Assembly (NCBI GenBank): GCA_902591565.1
Contig: CACJBC010000005.1
Span: 1 to 64,000 of the forward strand
Direction of reading: 5' to 3'
DNA length: 64,000 nucleotides
Source of the DNA: an uncultured SAR86 cluster bacterium
GTDB taxonomy: Bacteria > Pseudomonadota > Gammaproteobacteria > Magnimaribacterales > D2472
Both the position numbers and the translations under genes were made by a program. Below are positions 9,750 to 20,188 of the stretch, piece after piece. Under the pieces are notes generated by a model. The model made no database searches. It saw nothing but the letters and a program-made list of their open reading frames with translations, and was not told the origin of the DNA. Position 1 is the stretch's first letter; each line of letters starts with the position of its first letter.

Positions 9750-11051
9750 TTATTTACTATTCAAATAATCTTTTAAAGCAAGTTTGTCAGCTTTCAAATC
9801 AGCCATAAAAGCATTAAAAAGTTTTTGCTCTTGGTTAGGCATAAGCCCTTTGGCCATATTTTTAATTTGCTGATAAAACCATGCCATTGAAGCAAATGCA
9901 TTGATTACTTTTATTAAAGTAAATGGGCTTGAAGGAGATAATATGGATGGCCCTAAGGATAGAGTTTTCTCAAAACTTGGTAATGTTTCTAACTCTCCAG
10001 ATATCATTTTTTTTATGCAATATGGGTCTGCACATAGAGGCCTGCCAATACCAACTATTTGGCAAACATTACTTTGTAAAGCATCATTAATACCTTCCCT
10101 AGTTCTGAAACCACCTGTAACCATCAAAGGTATAGAAACTGCTTTTCTAATATCTTGAGCATATTCAAGAAAATAAGCCTCGCGAGCAATGGTACTTTCT
10201 TTTCTTTTTTCACTTCTTTTAGCGTTAATAGATGCTTCTACACCAATAAGCTTAGGCTGTTCGTATGTTCCTCCAGAAATTTCAATAATATCTACTCCTG
10301 CATTTTCTAGCATTTGGGCTACCTTTATACTCTCATCTGGACTGAATCCACCTTTCTGAAAGTCTGCAGAATTTAATTTAACTGAAATAGGAAAATCTTC
10401 ACCAACTTCTTGTCTACATCTCTTAATAATTTCTAAATGAATTCTTGCTCTATTTTCTATGCTGCCGCCCCATGCATCAGTTCTATTATTAATGTCTGGT
10501 GATAAAAATTCAGATAAAAGATATCCATGAGCAGAATGAAATTGCACACCGGTAAAACCTGTATCCCTTGCTATTTTTGCAGCAAAAACAAATCTATCAA
10601 TTAAATCAAGAATATCTTCCTCAGTCATAGGTGTTGGGGTACCAAAATTCTTACCAGGAATCTTTAGTCCAATATCTGAAGGCGCCAGGGGTGAAGAATT
10701 TATTTCACCAGGCGTTTGTCTACCAGCATGAGAGATTTGCATCCATAATTGTGTATTGTTTTTTGTTCCTGCTCTTGCCCATGTATTTAAAGCGTCAAGT
10801 TGATCTTTATAATTATTTTGATCTATCGCAACATTTGCTGGTCCTTCAAGATTTCTTCGGTCAACTTGAACATTTCCAGTAAGAGAAATACCTATATTGC
10901 CCTCTGCCCATCTCTCGTAAAGATTTGCATGACCTTGATGTGCAAGATTATTACCTTTAGCAATACGTTCTGTCATTGCTGCTTTGCAAACTCGATTTTT
11001 GATAACCTGACCACAAGGCAAAGTAAAAGATTCATTTATTAAATTTTGCAT
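9750..11051 (-). CDS. NADH:flavin oxidoreductase, old yellow enzyme family
   Basis: A 433-residue FMN-dependent ene-reductase-type enzyme with a TIM barrel. Motifs are the N-terminal NRVCKAAMTE, the WMQISHAGRQTPGE block, GVQFHSAHGYLLSEFLSP with the substrate-site His, and RTDAWGGSIENRAR, ending with VTGGFRT and VGIGRPLCADP, which bind the FMN phosphate. A C-terminal tail of about 60 residues follows the barrel. There is no iron-sulfur and no second Rossmann domain, so it is of the simple OYE type and not the 2,4-dienoyl-CoA reductase type. It probably reduces activated C=C bonds. It lies just outside the tRNA-fragment end of the island and may be the native neighbour of the tRNA gene. Confidence 0.92.
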   Translation of the reverse strand: MQNLINESFTLPCGQVIKNRVCKAAMTERIAKGNNLAHQGHANLYERWAEGNIGISLTGNVQVDRRNLEGPANVAIDQNNYKDQLDALNTWARAGTKNNTQLWMQISHAGRQTPGEINSSPLAPSDIGLKIPGKNFGTPTPMTEEDILDLIDRFVFAAKIARDTGFTGVQFHSAHGYLLSEFLSPDINNRTDAWGGSIENRARIHLEIIKRCRQEVGEDFPISVKLNSADFQKGGFSPDESIKVAQMLENAGVDIIEISGGTYEQPKLIGVEASINAKRSEKRKESTIAREAYFLEYAQDIRKAVSIPLMVTGGFRTREGINDALQSNVCQIVGIGRPLCADPYCIKKMISGELETLPSFEKTLSLGPSILSPSSPFTLIKVINAFASMAWFYQQIKNMAKGLMPNQEQKLFNAFMADLKADKLALKDYLNSK

Positions 11052-11132: not shown

Positions 11133-11183
11133 TAAATGGTGGGCCCGGGAGGACTCGAACCTCCAACCAATGGATTATGAGTC
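11133..11183 (-). repeat. 51-bp direct repeat: truncated 3' part of tRNA-Ile2(CAU), putative att site
   Basis: These 51 bases match 16360-16410 at 50 positions; the only difference is one A/G in the variable region (11165 versus 16392). They span from the anticodon stem-loop through the T arm, acceptor strand and CCA end, plus four flanking bases. The D arm and 5' acceptor strand are missing, so this is not a working tRNA. It lies in the same orientation as the intact tRNA, as expected for the displaced end left by site-specific integration. It begins 20 bp beyond the stop of the agt gene. Confidence 0.93.
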
Positions 11184-11203
11184 ACCTATTTATCTTAAAT
11201 GCC

Positions 11204-12211
11204 TTAAGCGGCAATTTCTTTTTTATTTTTTATAGGGCTTAAGGCTTCTAGAAACTGATTAGTTACCTTTTTCCATGAGTGCTTTTCAGCAAATCTAATG
11301 CAAGAATTAGAGTTAACCTTGATTGCTTCATGTATTGCATATTCGAGATCGTCAGATAAATATCCATTCAAATTATTTTGAATTAAATCTATTGGGCCAG
11401 TCACAGGATATGCAGCTACAGGAGTTCCACATGCTAAAGATTCAATCATCACAATTCCATAGGTATCTGTCTTTGACGGAAAAACGAAGCATGAAGCTCC
11501 GGAATACCATTGTGCTAGATCTTCTTTATACTTATAACCAAGAAAAAGTGCGTCTGGATATTTGCTTTTAAGTTGTGATAACTGGGGTCCTTTACCAATA
11601 ACTACCTTTTTTAAATGAGATTTTATTTTTAAAAAATCTTCAATGCTTTTTTCATGAGAAACCCTTCCAACATAAAGCAAATAATCATAATCTACTGGAG
11701 AAGTTCTTGGCTTAAAAATATCTAAATCTATAGCTCTACTCCAAGTCTTAAGATTTTTAAAACCTCTTTGAATTAATTCATCTTTCTGTGAAGATGTATT
11801 TACAAGTGTATTTATGGCTCCACTATGAAACCATTTTAAATAGCTATAGGTGATTTCAATAGGAAAACTTATTCTTGCCTTGAGATATTCTGGAAATTTA
11901 GTATGGATAGCTGAGGTAAATTTTATTTTATGTTTTTTACACAATATTCTTGCTCTAAGACCTAATGGTCCCTCTGTTGCAATATGGATAGCGTCATAAG
12001 TTTCATCAAGAATGAAGTTTTTTAACTGATTGGTCTCAATGGCTATATTAATTTCGTGATAACCTGGTAAGGGTATTGATTTAAATAAGCTTGGTTCTAC
12101 GATATCAGCTTGATAGCCTGCTTTCGCCAATTCTTTGGTAACGTTTGATAGTGTAGTAACAACTCCATTAACCTGAGGATGCCATGCATCTGTAATTATT
12201 AAAATTTTCAT
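11204..12211 (-). CDS. agt: GT4 glycosyltransferase, Agt-like glycolipid synthase for phosphate limitation
   Basis: A 335-residue GT-B enzyme of family GT4. The N-terminus has ITDAWHPQVNGVVTTL, the nucleotide-sugar domain has the strand LLYVGRVSHEKSIEDFL and the segment FVFPSKTDTYGIVMIESLACGTPVAAY with the ExxxxxE-type donor-site residues. The nearest characterised relatives by layout are the Agt enzymes that glycosylate diacylglycerol to mono-glycosyl or glucuronosyl lipids, and mannosyltransferases of the MgtA/PimB type. It starts 2 bp after the plcP stop, so the two are co-translated. Agt paired with PlcP is the known gene pair for replacing phospholipids with phosphorus-free glycolipids. 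The sugar donor is not predictable here. The stop lies 20 bp from the att-like repeat. Confidence 0.87.
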   Translation of the reverse strand: MKILIITDAWHPQVNGVVTTLSNVTKELAKAGYQADIVEPSLFKSIPLPGYHEINIAIETNQLKNFILDETYDAIHIATEGPLGLRARILCKKHKIKFTSAIHTKFPEYLKARISFPIEITYSYLKWFHSGAINTLVNTSSQKDELIQRGFKNLKTWSRAIDLDIFKPRTSPVDYDYLLYVGRVSHEKSIEDFLKIKSHLKKVVIGKGPQLSQLKSKYPDALFLGYKYKEDLAQWYSGASCFVFPSKTDTYGIVMIESLACGTPVAAYPVTGPIDLIQNNLNGYLSDDLEYAIHEAIKVNSNSCIRFAEKHSWKKVTNQFLEALSPIKNKKEIAA

Positions 12212-12213
12212 AA

Positions 12214-12999
12214 CTAAGAGGCTCTTAATAACTTAATTTCTTGATTTTCAATTGCAGCCCAATCAATCAACTTAAATTGTCCGTTATGGTCCTCAACTAA
12301 AGCAGTTACAGATTCAACCCAGTCACCAGTATTAAAATAATCTATGCCATCAATTAATTTAATTTCTGCTTTATGAATATGGCCACAAACTATTCCATCA
12401 AAACCTCTAGATTTACACTCTTTGACTAAGCTTTCCTCATAATCAGAAGCTTTATTGACTAATTGTTTTGCTTTATCTTTTAAATACTTCGATAAAGACC
12501 AATGTCCATAACCAAGTCTTGCTCGAAAATAATTTAGTATTTTATTGAGAGATAATAAAACGGTATAAATTTTGTCACCAAGTATTGATAAATGACGACC
12601 ATATCTAGTAACTATATCAAACTGATCTCCATGAATAATTAAAAGTTTTTTACCTTTAACTGAAACATACTCATACTCTTCTATAAGCTCAATATTTCCA
12701 AGATTCAATGGCTGATAAAGCCTTAAAAGATCATCATGATTTCCAGTAATATATTTTACTTTGGTTCCATTTTTAGACATTGATAATATATTTCTAATTA
12801 CATCTACATGTTCTTGAGGCCAATAAAGCTTAGATTTTAGTCTCCAACAATCAATAATATCCCCAACTAAAAAAAGATTTTCGCATTCATGCTTCTTTAA
12901 AAAATTATATAAAGATTTTGCCTGACAGCCTTTAGAGCCAAGATGAATATCGGAAAGAAATATTGATTTGTATTTTATCATTGAAACATTATGTTTCAT
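12214..12999 (-). CDS. plcP: PlcP-type phospholipase C (calcineurin-like metallophosphoesterase)
   Basis: A 261-residue cytoplasmic metallophosphoesterase related to LpxH but of the PlcP type, which removes the phosphate head group from phospholipids to give diacylglycerol during phosphate starvation. Metal-site motifs are SDIHLGSKGCQA, GDIIDCWRL, TGNHDDLL, a HGDQFD His and CGHIHKAEI, and the C-terminal NTGDWVESVTALVE matches the PlcP consensus. The KGCQAKSL, YWPQEH and GHWSLSKYLK phrases are also PlcP-like and separate it from LpxH. A ribosome binding site AGGA stands 9-12 bases before the ATG. A 252-bp AT-rich gap upstream (13000-13251) should hold the promoter. I could not recognise a clear Pho box there. 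Product feeds the Agt enzyme encoded 2 bp downstream. Confidence 0.88.
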   Translation of the reverse strand: MKHNVSMIKYKSIFLSDIHLGSKGCQAKSLYNFLKKHECENLFLVGDIIDCWRLKSKLYWPQEHVDVIRNILSMSKNGTKVKYITGNHDDLLRLYQPLNLGNIELIEEYEYVSVKGKKLLIIHGDQFDIVTRYGRHLSILGDKIYTVLLSLNKILNYFRARLGYGHWSLSKYLKDKAKQLVNKASDYEESLVKECKSRGFDGIVCGHIHKAEIKLIDGIDYFNTGDWVESVTALVEDHNGQFKLIDWAAIENQEIKLLRAS

Positions 13000-13251
13000 G
13001 TGTATTTCATCCTAATTACATTTGTGTAAAAATTTAAGAACTTTTTTTAAAGGTTGATAAATTTTAAAATAGAAATCCATAACACGACATAATCAAAAAA
13101 TTAGTTATATCTAGCGAATATCTCACAATTTCTCTCCAAAAAAATTATTCGAAATCGTGATGATTAAACAAAAATTTTGTTAAATCTAGATTGAGATAAT
13201 GTAAATTAATGCAAATTTTTTGAAATTAATTGTGATTAAAATAACTTTTAA

Positions 13252-14847
13252 CTAATTATTAATTTTAATAGGTTGATTATGTTTAATATCAAAAACAGGT
13301 GATTCAAAATTCTTATAATCATAAGATTTTACTGTTGATACGTATTTATAAATAACTCTTGCACTTTCTTTTTGTAGTGACAAAAGAGCATAACCTTTAA
13401 AAGAACTATTTGTATAAATTAAATTATCGTTTTCGTCTAGATATTGATTATCGATTTGGTTGGCATAATCTCCAAATAAATCAACTCCATTTGGCGATGA
13501 TATCGATGGAGCCCCTATCTCGATGCCTATAAAATTTTCTTTATGGTCATATAAGTTAGATAGCCAAGATGAATGAGTATCGCCAGCTAAAATAATATTT
13601 GATTGTGAGTTCTGAATTATTTTATAAAATTTTTCTCTTTCTTTTGGATAACCATCCCACTGATCAGTATTCCAAGGTAGTTTTTTTCCAGCTAGTTGTA
13701 GATATATGTGCATATATTCGGGAACTAATGATTTATCAATTTTTTTAAGTGCATCAGGCAAATATTGAGGTCCAATTAATATTTGCTGACCAAATATTGA
13801 CCACTTGTACTTCTTATCAAGTGTATTTTTAATCCAGTTAAATTGTTTATTACCTAAAAGTTTTCTTGGTTTTTTTAGAGCCTTTTTATAGGATTCATAT
13901 TCAAACACACCGTCTGCAAAAAAATCATTTATATCCAGTTGTTTATCTCTTGAGATCAGTCTTGTATCTAACATTAATAATTGAAATAAGTTTCCTACCT
14001 CAAAACTTCTCCAAATATTTGTTTTATTATTGCTTTCTCTTATCGGCATCCATTCATAATAGGCTTTTAAGGCGTTTATCTTTCTGCTAAGAAAACTTCC
14101 TTCATTTATTGAATGATTTTCTGCTCCGCTTTTCCACGTATTATTAGTAAACTCATGATCATCCCAAACAACAATCATTGGTTTGTTTTTATGCAGCAAC
14201 TGTAGGTCTTGATCTGTTTTGTATTGAGCATGTCTAAGCCTGTAATCTTTTAGAGAAATTAGCTCATTTGATGGAATACTAACTCTATTTAATTCATTTG
14301 AATTCTCAGATGCATAGCCATCTTTTTCGTATTCATATAAGTAGTCACCTAAGTGAAGAACAAGATCAATATCTTTATTTTTAGCTATCTCCTTATAAGC
14401 ATTAAAAAATCCAGCGGGATAATTTGAGCAACTGCAAAATGCTATATTAAAAAGATCTGGATTGTGAATAGGCAAGGTAATAGTGGAACCAACAGGAGAA
14501 AAGTAATTATTACAAATGAATCTATAAAAAATTTGCGTACCGTTGTATTTTTTAGGAATTCTTACGTCAACCTTTACAGTAAAATCTTTATAAGCTAAAG
14601 CTTTTGCTTTTCCTGAAGATATAATTTTTTGAAAGTTTTTGTCATCTGATATCTCCCAATTCACATTAATTGATGTATTAGAGATTTTTGTTATTCGCGT
14701 CCAAATGATTACATTCGTATTTGTAGGATCACCACTTGCAACTCCATGATTGAATAATATTTTTTCGTTGTTATTACTTGAACTTAGCCTAAAACTAAAA
14801 AAAGTTAATAAGAAAGTAAAAAATTTTAGAAATGATCTTCTTTGCAT
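13252..14847 (-). CDS. phoD: PhoD-family alkaline phosphatase/phosphodiesterase, Tat-exported
   Basis: A secreted metallophosphatase of the PhoD type, which frees phosphate from organic esters using Ca and Fe. The start chosen gives MQRRSFLKFFTF, a twin-arginine signal; a GTG 39 bp upstream is in frame but would only add residues before it. After the signal comes the PhoD N-terminal domain (FNHGVASGDPTNTNVIIWTRI), then the metal motifs FCSCSNY, LHLGDYLYEY, VVWDDHEFTNN, and LAGDTHSSWLS. Tat export fits folding with metals in the cytoplasm. The gene is divergent from the aquaporin gene across an 85-bp gap. It is the second phosphate-acquisition gene of the island beside plcP-agt. The exact substrate (monoester or diester) is not visible. 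Confidence 0.93.
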   Translation of the reverse strand: MQRRSFLKFFTFLLTFFSFRLSSSNNNEKILFNHGVASGDPTNTNVIIWTRITKISNTSINVNWEISDDKNFQKIISSGKAKALAYKDFTVKVDVRIPKKYNGTQIFYRFICNNYFSPVGSTITLPIHNPDLFNIAFCSCSNYPAGFFNAYKEIAKNKDIDLVLHLGDYLYEYEKDGYASENSNELNRVSIPSNELISLKDYRLRHAQYKTDQDLQLLHKNKPMIVVWDDHEFTNNTWKSGAENHSINEGSFLSRKINALKAYYEWMPIRESNNKTNIWRSFEVGNLFQLLMLDTRLISRDKQLDINDFFADGVFEYESYKKALKKPRKLLGNKQFNWIKNTLDKKYKWSIFGQQILIGPQYLPDALKKIDKSLVPEYMHIYLQLAGKKLPWNTDQWDGYPKEREKFYKIIQNSQSNIILAGDTHSSWLSNLYDHKENFIGIEIGAPSISSPNGVDLFGDYANQIDNQYLDENDNLIYTNSSFKGYALLSLQKESARVIYKYVSTVKSYDYKNFESPVFDIKHNQPIKINN

Positions 14848-14932
14848 ATTTTCTTTTATATCTTGATTTTGTGAAAATAATGTCACAATAAGGTGTTAGT
14901 TTATAAATTAATTTTTATACATAAAGGAAATC

Positions 14933-15571
14933 ATGAACATACAAAAATATTTTTCTGAGTTTATTGGTACAGGATTTTTATTTGCAGCAGTAGTAGGATC
15001 TGGGATTATGGGTCAAAACTTGAGCCCTAATAATGATGGAGTTATTCTTTTGACCAATACAATAGCTACAGTTTTTGCACTTTATTTTTTGATTGTTACT
15101 TTTCAAAAATATAGCGCTAACTTCAATCCTGTTGTTTCAATGGTAATGTTTTTAAATGGCAGATTATCTTTCAAAGACCTAATTATTTATGCTTTTTTAC
15201 AAATAATTGGAGCAACACTTGGGGTTTTATTAGTAAACTATTTATTTGGCCTGGATGTAATTCAATTTTCAGTTAATCAAAGATCTGGAGCAAATATTTT
15301 TGTAAGCGAAATTTTTGCAACATTTGGATTGATCTTAATTATCTTGATTTCATCTTCTAAAAATATAGCCTCATCAGTTGCAGCGTATATCGGAGCAGCA
15401 TACTGGTTTACATCTTCAACATCATTTGCAAACCCCGCAGCATCAATAAGCAGAATGTTTTCTGATACTTTTGCGGGCATAAGTCCAGAAAATGTTTTTT
15501 TATTTTGTATTGCTCAGTGTATTGGAGGAATATTAGCCTATGCATTATATAAACAAATTTATTTAAAGTAG
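14933..15571 (+). CDS. Aquaporin (MIP family), AqpS-like
   Basis: A 212-residue membrane channel with six hydrophobic segments and the two half-helix motifs of the MIP family: the first as NFNPVVS (Asn-Pro-Val in place of the usual Asn-Pro-Ala) and the second as SFANPAAS followed by ISRMFSDTFAGI, with the selectivity-filter Arg. The phrase TSSTSFANPA with SRxxSDTFAGI resembles the AqpS-like proteins found in bacterial ars operons, where they let arsenite out after arsenate has been reduced. In a phosphate-starvation island this is plausible because arsenate enters through phosphate transporters. Glycerol or water transport are alternatives. AAAGGAAA just before the ATG is a strong ribosome binding site. 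Confidence 0.85.
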   Translation: MNIQKYFSEFIGTGFLFAAVVGSGIMGQNLSPNNDGVILLTNTIATVFALYFLIVTFQKYSANFNPVVSMVMFLNGRLSFKDLIIYAFLQIIGATLGVLLVNYLFGLDVIQFSVNQRSGANIFVSEIFATFGLILIILISSSKNIASSVAAYIGAAYWFTSSTSFANPAASISRMFSDTFAGISPENVFLFCIAQCIGGILAYALYKQIYLK

Positions 15572-15749
15572 TTTAAAAAATTTATAGAGTAGATCCCAAC
15601 TACGCCTTAAAGGAATTCATGCACTAAAATAAGCCCAGACAATTTTTAGTTCCTAGTGACACAATTTAATTCAAAATTTTTACACTAACTTAACAGTAAA
15701 GATACACATCCGAGATTAAATATAGTTCTTGTTATTTACGGAATAATAA

Positions 15750-16172
15750 ATGAAATCTTTTGTATTTATTTCTTTTACAATTTTTTCTTCATTAATATTT
15801 TCACATGAAATCAAGACTGTAATTGTTGAATTGAATGGCATGGATTTTGTAAATGATGATTTAACATATGGCAATCAAATACTTTGGATCCCTGAGATTG
15901 ATGAAGAAGTTGTAGCATCTGGAAGCGTTCAAGGTTTTTTAGCTAGGTACAAAAAAGGTGATTATCTTGATCCAGAAAAAGGCTTTGATGATAAAGAGCA
16001 AAGATGGAGTCATCTTCCTAATTTAAGTTTGTATTTTGATGAGCCGGCATTTATTTATCTTAGTCATGGTAATGGATATGTGAGACTTTCTTATCAATCA
16101 CAAGTAAGCATACAGCAAATGATTGATTACACCTCTGGCAGGAAGTTAAAAATAGTTATTCACAAAGATTGA
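15750..16172 (+). CDS. Small exported protein of unknown function
   Basis: A 140-residue protein I do not recognise. A signal peptide (MKSFVFISFTIFSSLIFS) is followed at once by HEIKTVIVELNGMDFVND, so the mature protein begins with a His-Glu that could bind metal. The rest is mixed, with many aromatic and acidic residues, LSLYFDEPAFIYLSHGNGYVRLS, and no Cys. No transmembrane segment follows the signal, so a periplasmic or surface location is likely. It is the last gene of the island before the tRNA and is followed by the 12-bp hairpin at 16276-16329. A phosphate-related role is guessed only from position. Confidence 0.7.
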   Translation: MKSFVFISFTIFSSLIFSHEIKTVIVELNGMDFVNDDLTYGNQILWIPEIDEEVVASGSVQGFLARYKKGDYLDPEKGFDDKEQRWSHLPNLSLYFDEPAFIYLSHGNGYVRLSYQSQVSIQQMIDYTSGRKLKIVIHKD

Positions 16173-16275
16173 TAGCCAATTTCGTTTAATTCACAAATTT
16201 ATACCAAAACGTAACTTGAATAACACATTGGTAAGTTTTAATGAGAAAGTAAGTTGATTAATGCAGTTTACATAC

Positions 16276-16329
16276 TACGGCAGCAGGGCAAACTACCCGC
16301 TCTACCATGCTACAAATCCTGCTGTCGTA
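16276..16329 (+). terminator. Long-stem hairpin near island end, possible terminator with tRNA-like core
   Basis: A 12-bp stem (16276-16287 with 16318-16329, one G.U pair on the plus strand) encloses a 30-base loop. On the plus strand it is followed by CCCC and a run of five T, which would suit termination of the small exported-protein gene. The minus-strand loop contains GGTAGAGC, the common D-arm octamer of tRNAs, but no T arm or anticodon arm, so it is not a complete tRNA. The long loop is unusual for an intrinsic terminator. Between 16173 and 16363 I see nothing else. Confidence 0.45.
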
Positions 16330-16359
16330 TCCCCTTTTTCAAAAAACAGAGTCAGCTTT

Positions 16360-16410
16360 TAAATGGTGGGCCCGGGAGGACTCGAACCTCCGACCAATGG
16401 ATTATGAGTC
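16360..16410 (-). repeat. Direct repeat, tRNA-side copy of the att-like sequence
   Basis: Partner of 11133-11183, with 50 of 51 positions identical. This copy lies inside the intact tRNA-Ile2(CAU) and covers its anticodon loop to CCA end. It marks the tRNA-proximal boundary of the putative island. Confidence 0.93.
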
Positions 16411-16440
16411 CACTGCTCTAACCAACTGAGCTACAGGCCC
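16364..16440 (-). tRNA. tRNA-Ile2 (anticodon CAU)
   Basis: A complete 77-nt cloverleaf: the acceptor stem pairs GGGCCTG with CGGGCCC, the D arm has TAGCTCAGTTGGTTAGAGC, the anticodon stem-loop GGACTCATAATCC shows CAU, and the T loop is GTTCGAG. The CCA end is encoded. The acceptor stem, discriminator A and anticodon arm match the Ile2 type, in which the C is converted to lysidine to read AUA, better than elongator Met. It sits just downstream of rpoD on the same strand, as in other gammaproteobacteria. A perfect TATAAT stands 28 bp upstream, so it has its own promoter. Confidence 0.9.
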
Positions 16441-16539: not shown

Positions 16540-18354
16540 TTATTCGTCTAGAAAGCTTTTTAAATGACTTGATCGACTTGGATGTCTTAGTTTTCTTAAA
16601 GCTTTTGCTTCAATCTGACGAATTCTTTCTCTTGTAACATCAAACTGTTTACCGACTTCTTCAAGTGTATGATCAGTATTCATTCCAATGCCAAACCTCA
16701 TTCTGAGTACCTTAGCTTCTCTGGCTGTTAATGATGCTAAGACATCATCAGTGGCAAAATGTAAACTTTCTTCAGTTGCATTTTCTAGTGGCGATTCAAT
16801 AACTGTGTCTTCAATGAAATCACCTAGGCTTGAATCTTCATCATCACCTATAGGTGTTTCAGTTGAAATTGGTTCTTTTGCAATTTTTAAAACTTTACGA
16901 ACTTTATCTTCTGGCATATCAAGCTCTTTGCTTAACTCTTCAGGTGTTGGTTCTCTTCCCATGTCTTGCATCATTTGTCGAGATACTCTATTGAGTTTGT
17001 TGATTGTCTCAATCATATGAACTGGTATTCTAATTGTTCTTGCTTGGTCAGCGATAGATCTTGTAATAGCTTGCCTAATCCACCAAGTTGCGTATGTAGA
17101 AAATTTATAGCCTCTTCTATATTCAAATTTATCAACAGCTTTCATAAGACCAATGTTTCCCTCTTGGATAAGATCTAAAAATTGGAGTCCTCTGTTCGTA
17201 TATTTTTTAGCTATTGAAATAACAAGCCTAAGGTTTGCTTCAACCATGTCTTTTTTAGCTCTTCTCATCTTGGTTTCGCCCATAGACATGCTTCTATTAA
17301 TTTCTTTAATTTCTTTAACGCTGAGTCCAACTCTTTGCTCAAGATCAATAATATCTTTTTGAGCAATGATTACATCCTGTTTTACTTTCTCTAGAAGGTC
17401 TTTCTTATATTTCTTTTCCTTCATGAGAGAATCTACCCATCTGACTTTTGTTAAGTTTTCAGCATAGCTCGCTAAAAAGTCTTTTCTTGGCATGCGCGCA
17501 TTTCTTACGAGCTGTTCTTGTATAGCTTTCTCTTTTTCTCTAATTCTACTCAAACCTGATCTTGCTATAGTTGCAATATCATCAAACATTCTTGGACTAA
17601 ACTTAAGGAACTGAAATATTTCACTTAATTTTTTGAATTCAGCATTAGCTTCTTTTGAGTGTCTACCTTTAGATTCAATAACTTTTTGAGTCTTATTATA
17701 TTGACGCTTCAAATTTGTCATTCTTCTCTGGACTTCCTGCATATCTGGACCTGAAGATGCTTCTTCATCAGACTCTTCAGCTGCTTCAGCTTCTTCTTTT
17801 GCTCTTTGACTTCCAGGGCCAGCAGATGGAACTTCTTCCATCTCTTCTAAGAACCCTGTTAGAAAATCATTAATTTTTTTCTCGCCATCTTTTACCATTT
17901 GATGATATTCAATGACGTACTCAACGGTTTTAGGATAATAGACGCTTGCAGAAAGGAGATCTCTCATGCCTTCTTCTATTCTTTTTGCAATCTCAATCTC
18001 ACCTTCACGAGTCAATAGATCAACAGTTCCCATTTCTCTCATGTACATTCGAACAGGATCAGTTGTTCTACCTGTTTCATTCTCAACAGCTGCAAGGGCT
18101 TCAGCAGCTTGCTCAAGGGCAATATCGTCTGAATCTTCAGACTCAGCAAGTAATAAATCATCTGCATCCGGAGCAGTTTCATGAACTTGCAGACCTAAAT
18201 CATTGATCATTCCAATTATTTCATCAACCTGGTCAGGATCAGATATGTCTTCAGGCAAATGATCATTAACATCTGCATAAGTTAAGTAACCTTGCTCTCT
18301 TCCCTTTTCAATAAGTTCGGCTATCTTTGAACCTTTTTTACTTAGTTTATCCAC
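16540..18354 (-). CDS. rpoD: Primary sigma factor RpoD (sigma-70)
   Basis: A 604-residue housekeeping sigma factor that directs RNA polymerase to most promoters. Present in order are region 1.1 (acidic, residues 1-80), region 1.2 ([16 protein letters not shown]), a non-conserved acidic insert near residues 170-205, region 2 with [59 protein letters not shown], region 3 ([16 protein letters not shown]), and region 4 with the helix-turn-helix [20 protein letters not shown]. It follows dnaG on the same strand with a 58-bp gap. In E. coli rpsU, dnaG and rpoD form one operon, but here rpsU is 34 kb away. Confidence 0.99.
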
Positions 18355-18412
18355 GAATTCTTGTACTCCAAATGTATTAGCTCTATTTGGTGATGAATTT
18401 CATTATTTCAAT

Positions 18413-20188
18413 CTATTTAGAGCTTAAATTTTTTAATAAAATCTGATCTTCTTCTGACATTACATCCTTTTTAAGGATTATCTGTTGTAGTTCTCTTTTT
18501 TCAGCAGATGTTATTTCCTGCATATTATACTTTTCTTTTAATATTTCCTGCCTATCTTTTTCAGATTTTGAAATTATGCCAATACAATCAATAAGCATTT
18601 TTTTTGCATTTTCCTCTGATAGTTTTATCTCAGAAACTAATGCTTCTCCAAATAGATTTTTTATTTTTTCATTTTCTATTTGTTCAAAAAGTATTGAAGG
18701 TGAAGCCATTGGATTATCTTTATAAAAGTTTCTAACATCATGTAAAAATAAAAATTTTGAATCTTTTGTAATTAGATTAAAAGATCTTTCATCCGCTAAC
18801 TTAGGATATTGAATTAAAACTGTAAAAACGCCCAATACTGACTTTCTAATGACAGACGCTGGAACTTTTTTTACTGGTTCTTCTTGTTTTACATTTTCTG
18901 GAACTATATTAACAACGCCATTAAGTAATTTTCTAAAATCTAAATCACAAATATGCCCAATCTCACTAATATAAGCCTCTCTTAATATTGGATTTACGAT
19001 TTTATCAACTAGAGGAACTGCAAACTGAGCAACTCTTGACCTTCCCTCAATTGATGAGAGATCGTCTTCCTTTTTGATGGTATCCAAAAAGTATTCTGAA
19101 AAAGAGATAGCTTCATCTGCTAGCTTTAAAAAGGCATCTTTGCCTTTATTTTTTATAAAACTATCAGGATCATCACCAGGCTTTAAAAATATAAAGCTCA
19201 TTCGCACATCCTCTCTAAGTAATGGTAAAGCATTTTCAACTGCTCTCCACGATGCCTTTTGACCAGCCTCGTCTCCATCAAACACAACAAAAATATCATT
19301 GGTATAACTTAGAATTTTGCGAAGTTGTTCTGGAGTAAAAGCGGTACCAGAGGAAGCAATAGCATTTTTTATTCCGTATTGATGTAGTCCAATGACATCC
19401 ATGTAGCCCTCAACTAAAAAGAGAGCCTTAGGTCTTTTTTCTATGAGTCTTGCTTCATAGAGACCATAAAGCTCATATTTTTTCTTGTAAGTTTTTGTTT
19501 CAGGTGAATTTAAATATTTTGCTTGATTGTCTTTATCAGCAATTAGTCTTCCTCCAAAGGCTATATGCTCTCCTTTAATATTTCTTATTGGGAACATCAA
19601 TCTATCCCTGAAACGATCGTACATCTCCCCATTATCATTAGTTCCAAAAAGACCAGAATCTTCTAGATCATTTTGGTTATATTGTGGAGACAAGATGCTA
19701 TAGAGGGATGGATTTTTTTCAATTGAATAGCCTAACTCAAAAAATTTTGCAGTTTCACCACTTATCCCCCTTGCTTTTAAATAGTCAACTGCATCTTTTC
19801 CTTTAGGCCCCTTTAGTTGGTCTTTAAAAATTTCAGTTGCCTTAGCATTTATGCTAATAGCATCTGATAAATCTATTGGCTTTTCTTGTTTCGGCACTTC
19901 CATGCCGACAGAAGCAGCTAATAGTTCAACTGATTCCATAAAATCAATACCATCATATTCTCTTAAAAAGTTAATAGCATTCCCTGAAGCTTTACAGGCA
20001 AAGCAATGATAGGAACCCGTTTCTTCATATACTACAAATGATGGTGTTTTCTCATTACCATCACCATGAAAGGGGCACTTAGCTTTATATCGACCTCCAG
20101 ATCGCTCAAGCTGAACTCTTCTATTGATAATATCAACAATACTCACCGTAGAAAGTAGTCGGTCAATAAAACTTGATGGTATAGACAT
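18413..20188 (-). CDS. dnaG: DNA primase
   Basis: Makes RNA primers for DNA replication. The 591-residue protein has an N-terminal zinc-binding CHC2-type domain (CPFHGDGNEKTPSF, then CFACKASG), the catalytic core with a RFRDRLMFPI strand and TOPRIM domain (LFLVEGYMDVI, VFDGDEAG, LKPGDDPDSF), and a C-terminal region that should bind DnaB helicase. It ends 58 bp before rpoD and begins 5 bp after ruvX, so all run in one direction. Confidence 0.99.
   Translation of the reverse strand: MSIPSSFIDRLLSTVSIVDIINRRVQLERSGGRYKAKCPFHGDGNEKTPSFVVYEETGSYHCFACKASGNAINFLREYDGIDFMESVELLAASVGMEVPKQEKPIDLSDAISINAKATEIFKDQLKGPKGKDAVDYLKARGISGETAKFFELGYSIEKNPSLYSILSPQYNQNDLEDSGLFGTNDNGEMYDRFRDRLMFPIRNIKGEHIAFGGRLIADKDNQAKYLNSPETKTYKKKYELYGLYEARLIEKRPKALFLVEGYMDVIGLHQYGIKNAIASSGTAFTPEQLRKILSYTNDIFVVFDGDEAGQKASWRAVENALPLLREDVRMSFIFLKPGDDPDSFIKNKGKDAFLKLADEAISFSEYFLDTIKKEDDLSSIEGRSRVAQFAVPLVDKIVNPILREAYISEIGHICDLDFRKLLNGVVNIVPENVKQEEPVKKVPASVIRKSVLGVFTVLIQYPKLADERSFNLITKDSKFLFLHDVRNFYKDNPMASPSILFEQIENEKIKNLFGEALVSEIKLSEENAKKMLIDCIGIISKSEKDRQEILKEKYNMQEITSAEKRELQQIILKKDVMSEEDQILLKNLSSK

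What the first reader, a model, noticed from the sequence alone, without database searches (positions are those of the whole stretch)
11133..16440. Phosphate-stress island bounded by a 51-bp tRNA-Ile2 repeat
The 3' part of tRNA-Ile2(CAU) is duplicated at both ends of a 5.2-kb block in the same orientation, with 50 of 51 bases the same. That is the expected trace of integration at a tRNA 3' end. The cargo, agt-plcP, phoD, an aquaporin and a small secreted protein, fits life under phosphate scarcity. No integrase is inside, so it may be moved in trans or be a stripped remnant. Nutrient-cargo elements anchored in tRNAs have been described in marine cyanobacteria; I know of no description in this lineage.
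Basis: partly seen in the sequence, partly recalled or inferred. Interest (0 to 1): 0.82.

Follow-up and report, generated by a model that had tools for sequence, protein, structure and literature searches.

The report
SAR86 phosphorus island at tRNA-Ile2 hotspot
In SAR86, an abundant uncultured ocean bacterium, one tRNA gene beside rpoD is a docking site where small foreign gene blocks insert and swap, and in this genome the block carries genes that probably help the cell live with little phosphate.

Summary
A tRNA-Ile2(CAU) gene (16364-16440, minus) lies beside rpoD. A 47-nt 3' piece of it (11137-11183) sits 5.2 kb downstream in the same orientation, inside a 51-bp repeat (50/51). Between them lie a glycosyltransferase, a PlcP-like phosphoesterase, PhoD, an aquaporin and a small secreted protein; there is no integrase.

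Relatives (SAR86) show a true insertion hotspot. Several have the empty site (tRNA 44-80 bp from the OYE gene). At least nine further inserts in the order are bounded by tRNA-Ile2 and its 3' fragment, with different cargo. Six genomes carry a second type, with a 5' fragment upstream. Nearly all fragment borders fall at the anticodon loop (nt 33-39), as for tyrosine integrases. One relative keeps an element with a complete integrase; another keeps only an integrase remnant beside phytase/TonB cargo, so stripping happens.

Cargo moves laterally: one cargo gene is 91% identical between two SAR86 families whose flanking genes are 33-65% identical. The window's own island is older than its split from its nearest relative.

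The kind (tRNA-anchored island) is known. New, as far as held papers show: the lineage, the integrase-free 1-7 kb inserts, and a recurring phosphorus/phospholipid cargo.

The parts
16364..16440 (-). tRNA-Ile2(CAU), complete; element boundary on the rpoD side
   Evidence: ARAGORN; Rfam tRNA 75.5 bits; present in 94 of 107 family genomes at E<=1e-12
11137..11183 (-). displaced 3' fragment of tRNA-Ile2 (nt 31-77, one mismatch); boundary on the OYE side
16402..16408 (-). inferred crossover core CTCATAA (anticodon loop, nt 33-39) in the tRNA
   Evidence: border comparison of 3' and 5' fragments; inference
11175..11181 (-). inferred crossover core CTCATAA in the fragment
   Evidence: inference
11184..16363 (.). 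integrase-free island between fragment and tRNA
   Evidence: empty sites in relatives
11204..12211 (-). GT4 glycosyltransferase (agt-like, by position after plcP)
   Evidence: Pfam; best NCBIfam match, far below cut-off, is a monoglucosyldiacylglycerol synthase
12214..12999 (-). PlcP-like calcineurin-family phosphoesterase
   Evidence: Pfam; weak LpxH-type matches
13252..14886 (-). PhoD-type alkaline phosphatase; likely true start at ATG 14847 (MQRRSFLK twin-arginine-like signal)
   Evidence: Pfam 3.6e-96; PDB 9uya and 2yeq
14870..14887 (+). Pho-box-like site TGTGAAAATAATGTCACA in the divergent phoD/aquaporin promoter
   Evidence: only perfect match to the pattern in 64 kb, but the pattern was drawn from it and the number of matches is no more than chance; conserved in G015
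14933..15571 (+). MIP channel (aquaporin family), substrate unknown
   Evidence: Pfam 1.3e-15
15750..16172 (+). 140-aa secreted protein of unknown function; 86% identical homologue beside phoD in G018
9750..11051 (-). OYE-family oxidoreductase, right-hand neighbour (flank)
   Evidence: Pfam; follows the tRNA directly in empty sites
16540..18354 (-). rpoD, left-hand neighbour (flank)
   Evidence: Pfam

Best explanation
The tRNA-Ile2(CAU) gene behind rpoD is an integration hotspot of SAR86. Tyrosine-recombinase elements cross over in its anticodon loop. Each brings a replacement half of the tRNA and leaves the displaced half at its other end (3' fragment downstream, or 5' fragment upstream). Integrase genes are then lost and useful cargo stays. 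The window holds such an integrase-free island, built from two modules (aquaporin-phoD and plcP-glycosyltransferase) plus a small secreted protein gene. Its cargo most likely serves life under phosphate scarcity: PhoD frees phosphate from esters; the PlcP-like enzyme splits membrane phospholipid; the glycosyltransferase rebuilds a sugar lipid. Shown: hotspot, empty sites, borders, lateral movement of cargo at this site, a decayed integrase in one relative. Inferred: recombinase action at this insert, enzyme functions, phosphate control.
For: Repeat and orientation. Empty sites and joined-flank alignment. Different cargo bounded by tRNA and 3' fragment in G003, G025, G055, G026, G028, G087, G068, G124, G071/G078, G092. 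3' borders at nt 30-36 in nine of ten distinct inserts, 5' borders at nt 39-40 in all six. No wrong-configuration fragments. 5'-type left end in 6 of 203 genomes, 4 genera, always beside this tRNA; reversed control 0. Element with integrase in G012; decayed integrase beside phytase/TonB cargo in G005. Lateral movement: G025/G055 dS 0.21 against 1.4 or more in flanks; window/G004 cargo dS 0.36-0.50 against 0.91 or more. Plausible phosphorus roles and Pho-box-like site.
Against: No integrase or decayed integrase was found in the window island, and its ends do not resemble those of the other elements. G004 carries the plcP module without a fragment. Cargo shared with G015 looks inherited, not recently moved. 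Several other inserts carry cargo unrelated to phosphorus. The control with another tRNA was inconclusive.
Confidence: 0.8

Rival explanations
1. Homologous recombination (for example uptake of relatives' DNA) swaps the segment between conserved flanks; the tRNA fragments are scars of ancient events and no recombinase is involved in present-day exchange.
For: rpoD and the next gene have raised dS against core background in the window/G015 pair, so the flank was exchanged. G004 has the plcP module without a fragment. G100 has three complete tRNA copies with duplicated neighbours.
Against: Fragment borders cluster at the anticodon loop and fragments occur only in the right configuration. The G025/G055 cargo gene moved between families whose flanks are far too divergent for easy homologous exchange.
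Confidence: 0.2
2. The islands are still mobile: integrase-free cassettes with attachment ends are moved in trans by integrases of other elements or phages.
For: Near-identical cargo and right ends in two families without an integrase inside. Recurring left-end sequence in several 3'-type inserts (G025, G055, G026, G124, G121). An intact integrase element exists at the same tRNA (G012).
Against: No carrier found in viral collections. The intact integrase belongs to the 5'-type element. The window's ends match none of the others and its genome lacks a candidate integrase.
Confidence: 0.2
3. The repeat is a chance or local tRNA duplication with no island.
For: tRNA fragments can arise by duplication; one fragment alone does not prove integration.
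Against: Empty sites, other fragment-bounded cargo at the same place and no wrong-orientation fragments in 69 loci.
Confidence: 0.02

Closest known systems
tRNA genomic islands of the Islander kind (PMC4383910)
   Same: Complete tRNA at one end, displaced fragment at the other, same orientation, anticodon-centred crossover; Islander lists 3760 3'-fragment, 159 5'-fragment and 2083 anticodon-centred islands.
   Different: No integrase inside; Islander rejects islands without an integrase or under 2 kb, so most of these inserts would be discarded. Both fragment types occur at one tRNA within one order.
Tycheposons (described in Prochlorococcus; in Methylophilaceae, PMC10872708)
   Same: Marine streamlined hosts, tRNA-anchored, nutrient cargo, tRNA-Met(cat) among the tRNAs used.
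   Different: Tycheposons are described with a tyrosine recombinase; the window island has none. The original paper is not held, so its full definition was not checked.
plcP-agt lipid-remodelling loci of marine heterotrophs (PMC4796936)
   Same: Glycosyltransferase directly downstream of plcP; PlcP in SAR86 already reported.
   Different: No mobile or tRNA-bounded setting was found in the passages read; here the pair sits on a tRNA-bounded island with phoD and an aquaporin.
phnCDEubiE operon in Pelagibacterales (PMC12416821)
   Same: Phosphorus cargo, laterally moved in marine plankton, next to tRNA and tyrosine recombinases.
   Different: Other lineage, other cargo (phosphonate uptake), recombinase genes adjacent.

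Membership tests
tRNA-anchored genomic island | complete tRNA plus displaced fragment in correct order and orientation | tested here: met
tRNA-anchored genomic island | empty site in relatives | tested here: met
tRNA-anchored genomic island | integrase gene inside (Islander filter) | tested here: not met
   so it is a tRNA island in anatomy, not an Islander-type complete island
tRNA-anchored genomic island | crossover at a known tRNA sub-site (anticodon loop) | tested here: met
tycheposon | tyrosine recombinase in the element | tested here: not met
   none in the window island; present in G012's element. It works like one in anchoring and cargo but is not filed as one.
tycheposon | tRNA at one border and nutrient cargo | tested here: met
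tycheposon | size 4-200 kb | tested here: met
   5.2 kb; several sister inserts are smaller
Pho-regulated lipid remodelling locus | plcP followed by glycosyltransferase | tested here: met
   arrangement as in PMC4796936
Pho-regulated lipid remodelling locus | Pho box before plcP | tested here: inconclusive
   perfect pattern match only in the phoD/aquaporin promoter
Pho-regulated lipid remodelling locus | induction by phosphate starvation | not testable with these tools
   needs culture or transcript data

The most novel reading that the evidence does not exclude
SAR86 populations share a pool of very small, integrase-free gene cassettes that dock in either direction at one tRNA anticodon loop, moved in trans by rare helper elements, and phosphorus genes are over-represented because phosphate scarcity selects them.
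Probability: 0.25. Interest if true: 0.78.

Novelty: new variant of a known kind. Interest (0 to 1): 0.6.

Why it matters
SAR86 is among the commonest uncultured surface-ocean bacteria, and how such streamlined cells gain local adaptations is open. A single defined docking site with empty, occupied, stripped and integrase-bearing states, many in single cells, makes the question testable: one can read the insert at tRNA-Ile2 in metagenomes and compare it with phosphate. Small integrase-free islands like these are discarded by the published Islander search rules, so they may be widely overlooked.

Tried and rejected
(1) That the window island shares element ends with the 3'-type inserts of G025/G055: not significant for G000 or G015. 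(2) That G000-G015 cargo is a recent transfer because it is closer than rpoD: rejected once 19 core genes gave a background dS near 0.3. (3) Pattern search for the 3'-type left end over 203 genomes: about as many hits as the reversed control, so only the hits beside the tRNA count. (4) Control with tRNA-Arg: list truncated before fragment-level E-values, inconclusive. (5) Viral carriers: none for the element end, integrase or phoD; one weak aquaporin hit. (6) RNA families: HPnc0260 and plastid ycf2 matches overlap the tRNA or its fragment below gathering score, read as artefacts. (7) Hairpin at about 16267-16332: no copy in any of 252 loci except the window's own, no strong fold. (8) Defence genes among unknown cargo: none.

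Full report
Check of the observation. The window holds one tRNA, 16364-16440 on the minus strand, anticodon CAT, 100 bp from rpoD (16540-18354). A 51-bp direct repeat, 50 of 51 identical, lies at 11133-11183 and 16360-16410. The left copy is nt 31-77 of the tRNA. The tRNA reads toward lower coordinates, so the fragment lies downstream of its 3' end in the same orientation. Cargo between the two: glycosyltransferase 11204-12211, calcineurin-like phosphoesterase 12214-12999, PhoD 13252-14886, MIP channel 14933-15571, and a 140-aa secreted protein 15750-16172 without family. No recombinase lies inside, and the held genome (1.07 Mb, 83% complete) has only two ~300-aa Phage_integrase-domain genes, XerC/XerD-sized.

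Lineage. A look-up with the neighbouring OYE gene returns mainly SAR86 cluster records, many of them single-cell genomes.

Empty sites. In relatives the order rpoD - tRNA-Ile2 - OYE is kept, and in G005, G006, G007 (two contigs), G009, G012, G016 and G035 the tRNA ends 44-80 bp before OYE. Joining the window's left flank through tRNA nt 32 to the fragment from nt 33 restores a tRNA with one mismatch and gives one continuous alignment to these loci, e.g. 79% over 345 bp with G007. Other occupied/empty pairs: G003 and G002, 88% over 247 bp; G028 and G032; G087 and G080, G071/G078 and G086/G076 by gene order.

A hotspot with many cargoes. In 65 loci with enough downstream sequence the first downstream gene belongs to 35 different clusters. 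Fragment-bounded 3'-type inserts: window; G003 PS decarboxylase and CDP-alcohol phosphatidyltransferase; G026 PAP2 and EptA/B-like (tRNA and fragment on separate contigs); G028 purple acid phosphatase; G025 and, in another family, G055 a membrane protein without Pfam family; G087 CobW; G124 CobW and DUF411; G068 a GST-family protein; G071/G078 FecR/TPR/cadherin-like genes (separate contigs); G092 MarC. Unbounded but at the site: G015 aquaporin-PhoD-ELM1-like-plcP, G004 plcP-glycosyltransferase, G118 purple acid phosphatase. Phosphorus or phospholipid genes thus occur in four of the ten distinct 3'-bounded inserts and in the G005 phytase/TonB insert. This was noticed after the fact and not tested against a genome background; most phoD and plcP copies in SAR86 lie elsewhere.

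Borders. The 3' fragments begin at tRNA nt 30-36 in nine of ten distinct inserts (nt 19 in G087). Six genomes of four genera have the mirror image: a 5' fragment ending at nt 39 or 40, then a conserved left end (CCTTGCTACAACTCTAAACCCCCATTCCTACAATG), then cargo or not, and in those not cut by a contig end a complete tRNA. The overlap of both kinds is the anticodon loop CTCATAA, nt 33-39, the usual 7-bp crossover of tyrosine integrases in tRNA genes (PMC8371274). No fragment above noise was found in a wrong position or strand.

The recombinase. G012's 7.2-kb 5'-type element carries a 474-aa protein beside the tRNA with integrase matches (phrog_1 7.6e-15) and a 191-aa Phage_integrase protein. Among 107 family genomes the first is complete only there. 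G005, whose element right end matches, retains just about 50 N-terminal residues with a stop, between its TonB-phytase cargo and the tRNA. That is direct evidence of integrase loss with cargo kept. The window island's own recombinase is unknown.

Lateral movement. The G025/G055 cargo gene has aa identity 91% and dS 0.21, while RpoD (72% over the part compared, 65% over 591 codons) and fourteen further flanking genes have aa 33-65% and dS of 1.4 or more. Between the window and G004, plcP and the glycosyltransferase have dS 0.36-0.50, against 0.91 or more for nine right-flank genes and 1.62 for rpoD. Between the window and G015 the cargo (0.35-0.42) equals the background of core genes (mostly 0.1-0.55), so there the island is inherited. 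In that pair rpoD (1.0) and the gene next to it (0.51) are raised, so the flank itself was exchanged.

How it likely works. Integration at the anticodon loop is inferred from borders and configuration. Function is inferred from families: PhoD as a secreted phosphatase (PDB relatives 2yeq and 9uya); PlcP plus glycosyltransferase as in marine lipid remodelling (PMC4796936); the aquaporin's substrate is unknown. A Pho-box-like site lies 23 bp before the probable phoD start and 45 bp before the aquaporin gene, conserved in G015; it is only a lead, since the pattern was drawn from it.

Against the literature. tRNA islands with 3' and 5' fragments and anticodon-centred sites are known (PMC4383910); tycheposons are the nearest nutrient-cargo elements (PMC10872708) but carry a recombinase. 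A tRNA- and recombinase-linked phosphonate operon was reported in Pelagibacterales (PMC12416821). Searches of the held library found no description for SAR86; most subscription papers are missing from it. I place it as a new variant of a known kind.

Noticed in passing
L138:1539-8905 (G012): A 7.2-kb 5'-type element with a 474-aa integrase, a 191-aa catalytic-domain-only tyrosine recombinase and several unknown proteins, one with an HUH-like THAHIQVK motif; no viral or phage relative of the integrase found.
   Followed up: partly
L136:5353-5642 (G005): Decayed integrase N-terminus beside TonB-receptor and phytase genes, directly left of tRNA-Ile2.
   Followed up: partly
L148:10004-10996 and L160:11045-12013 (G025, G055): Membrane protein without Pfam, NCBIfam or PADLOC match, 91% identical between two SAR86 families; in G025 the insert is followed by a second copy of the same left end, i.e. 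tandem inserts.
   Followed up: yes
L070, L071, L073, L074, L075, L082: In another SAR86 family phoD lies between tRNA-Asp and tRNA-Val genes, about 80 bp from each: perhaps a second tRNA-linked site for phoD.
   Followed up: no
L178 (G100): Three complete tRNA-Ile2 copies in 4.4 kb, with DUF411 and GcvT-like genes repeated between them: tandem duplication at the hotspot.
   Followed up: no
window 16540-20188: dS to G015 climbs toward the tRNA (about 0.2-0.3, then 0.51, then about 1.0 in rpoD), a sign of homologous exchange of the hotspot flank.
   Followed up: partly
window 16267-16332: Imperfect inverted repeat (TACGGCAGCAGG / CCTGCTGTCGTA) with a tRNA D-arm-like stretch between its arms; absent from all fetched relatives, no Rfam match.
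   Followed up: partly
L141 (G018): OYE, phoD, the small secreted protein and a distant plcP lie together away from rpoD and the tRNA, so OYE itself may travel with this cargo.
   Followed up: no
relatives, between rpoD and tRNA (e.g. L138:798-1436): A YrbL-family gene lies between rpoD and the tRNA in many relatives but is missing in the window genome and others, leaving 6-103 bp.
   Followed up: no
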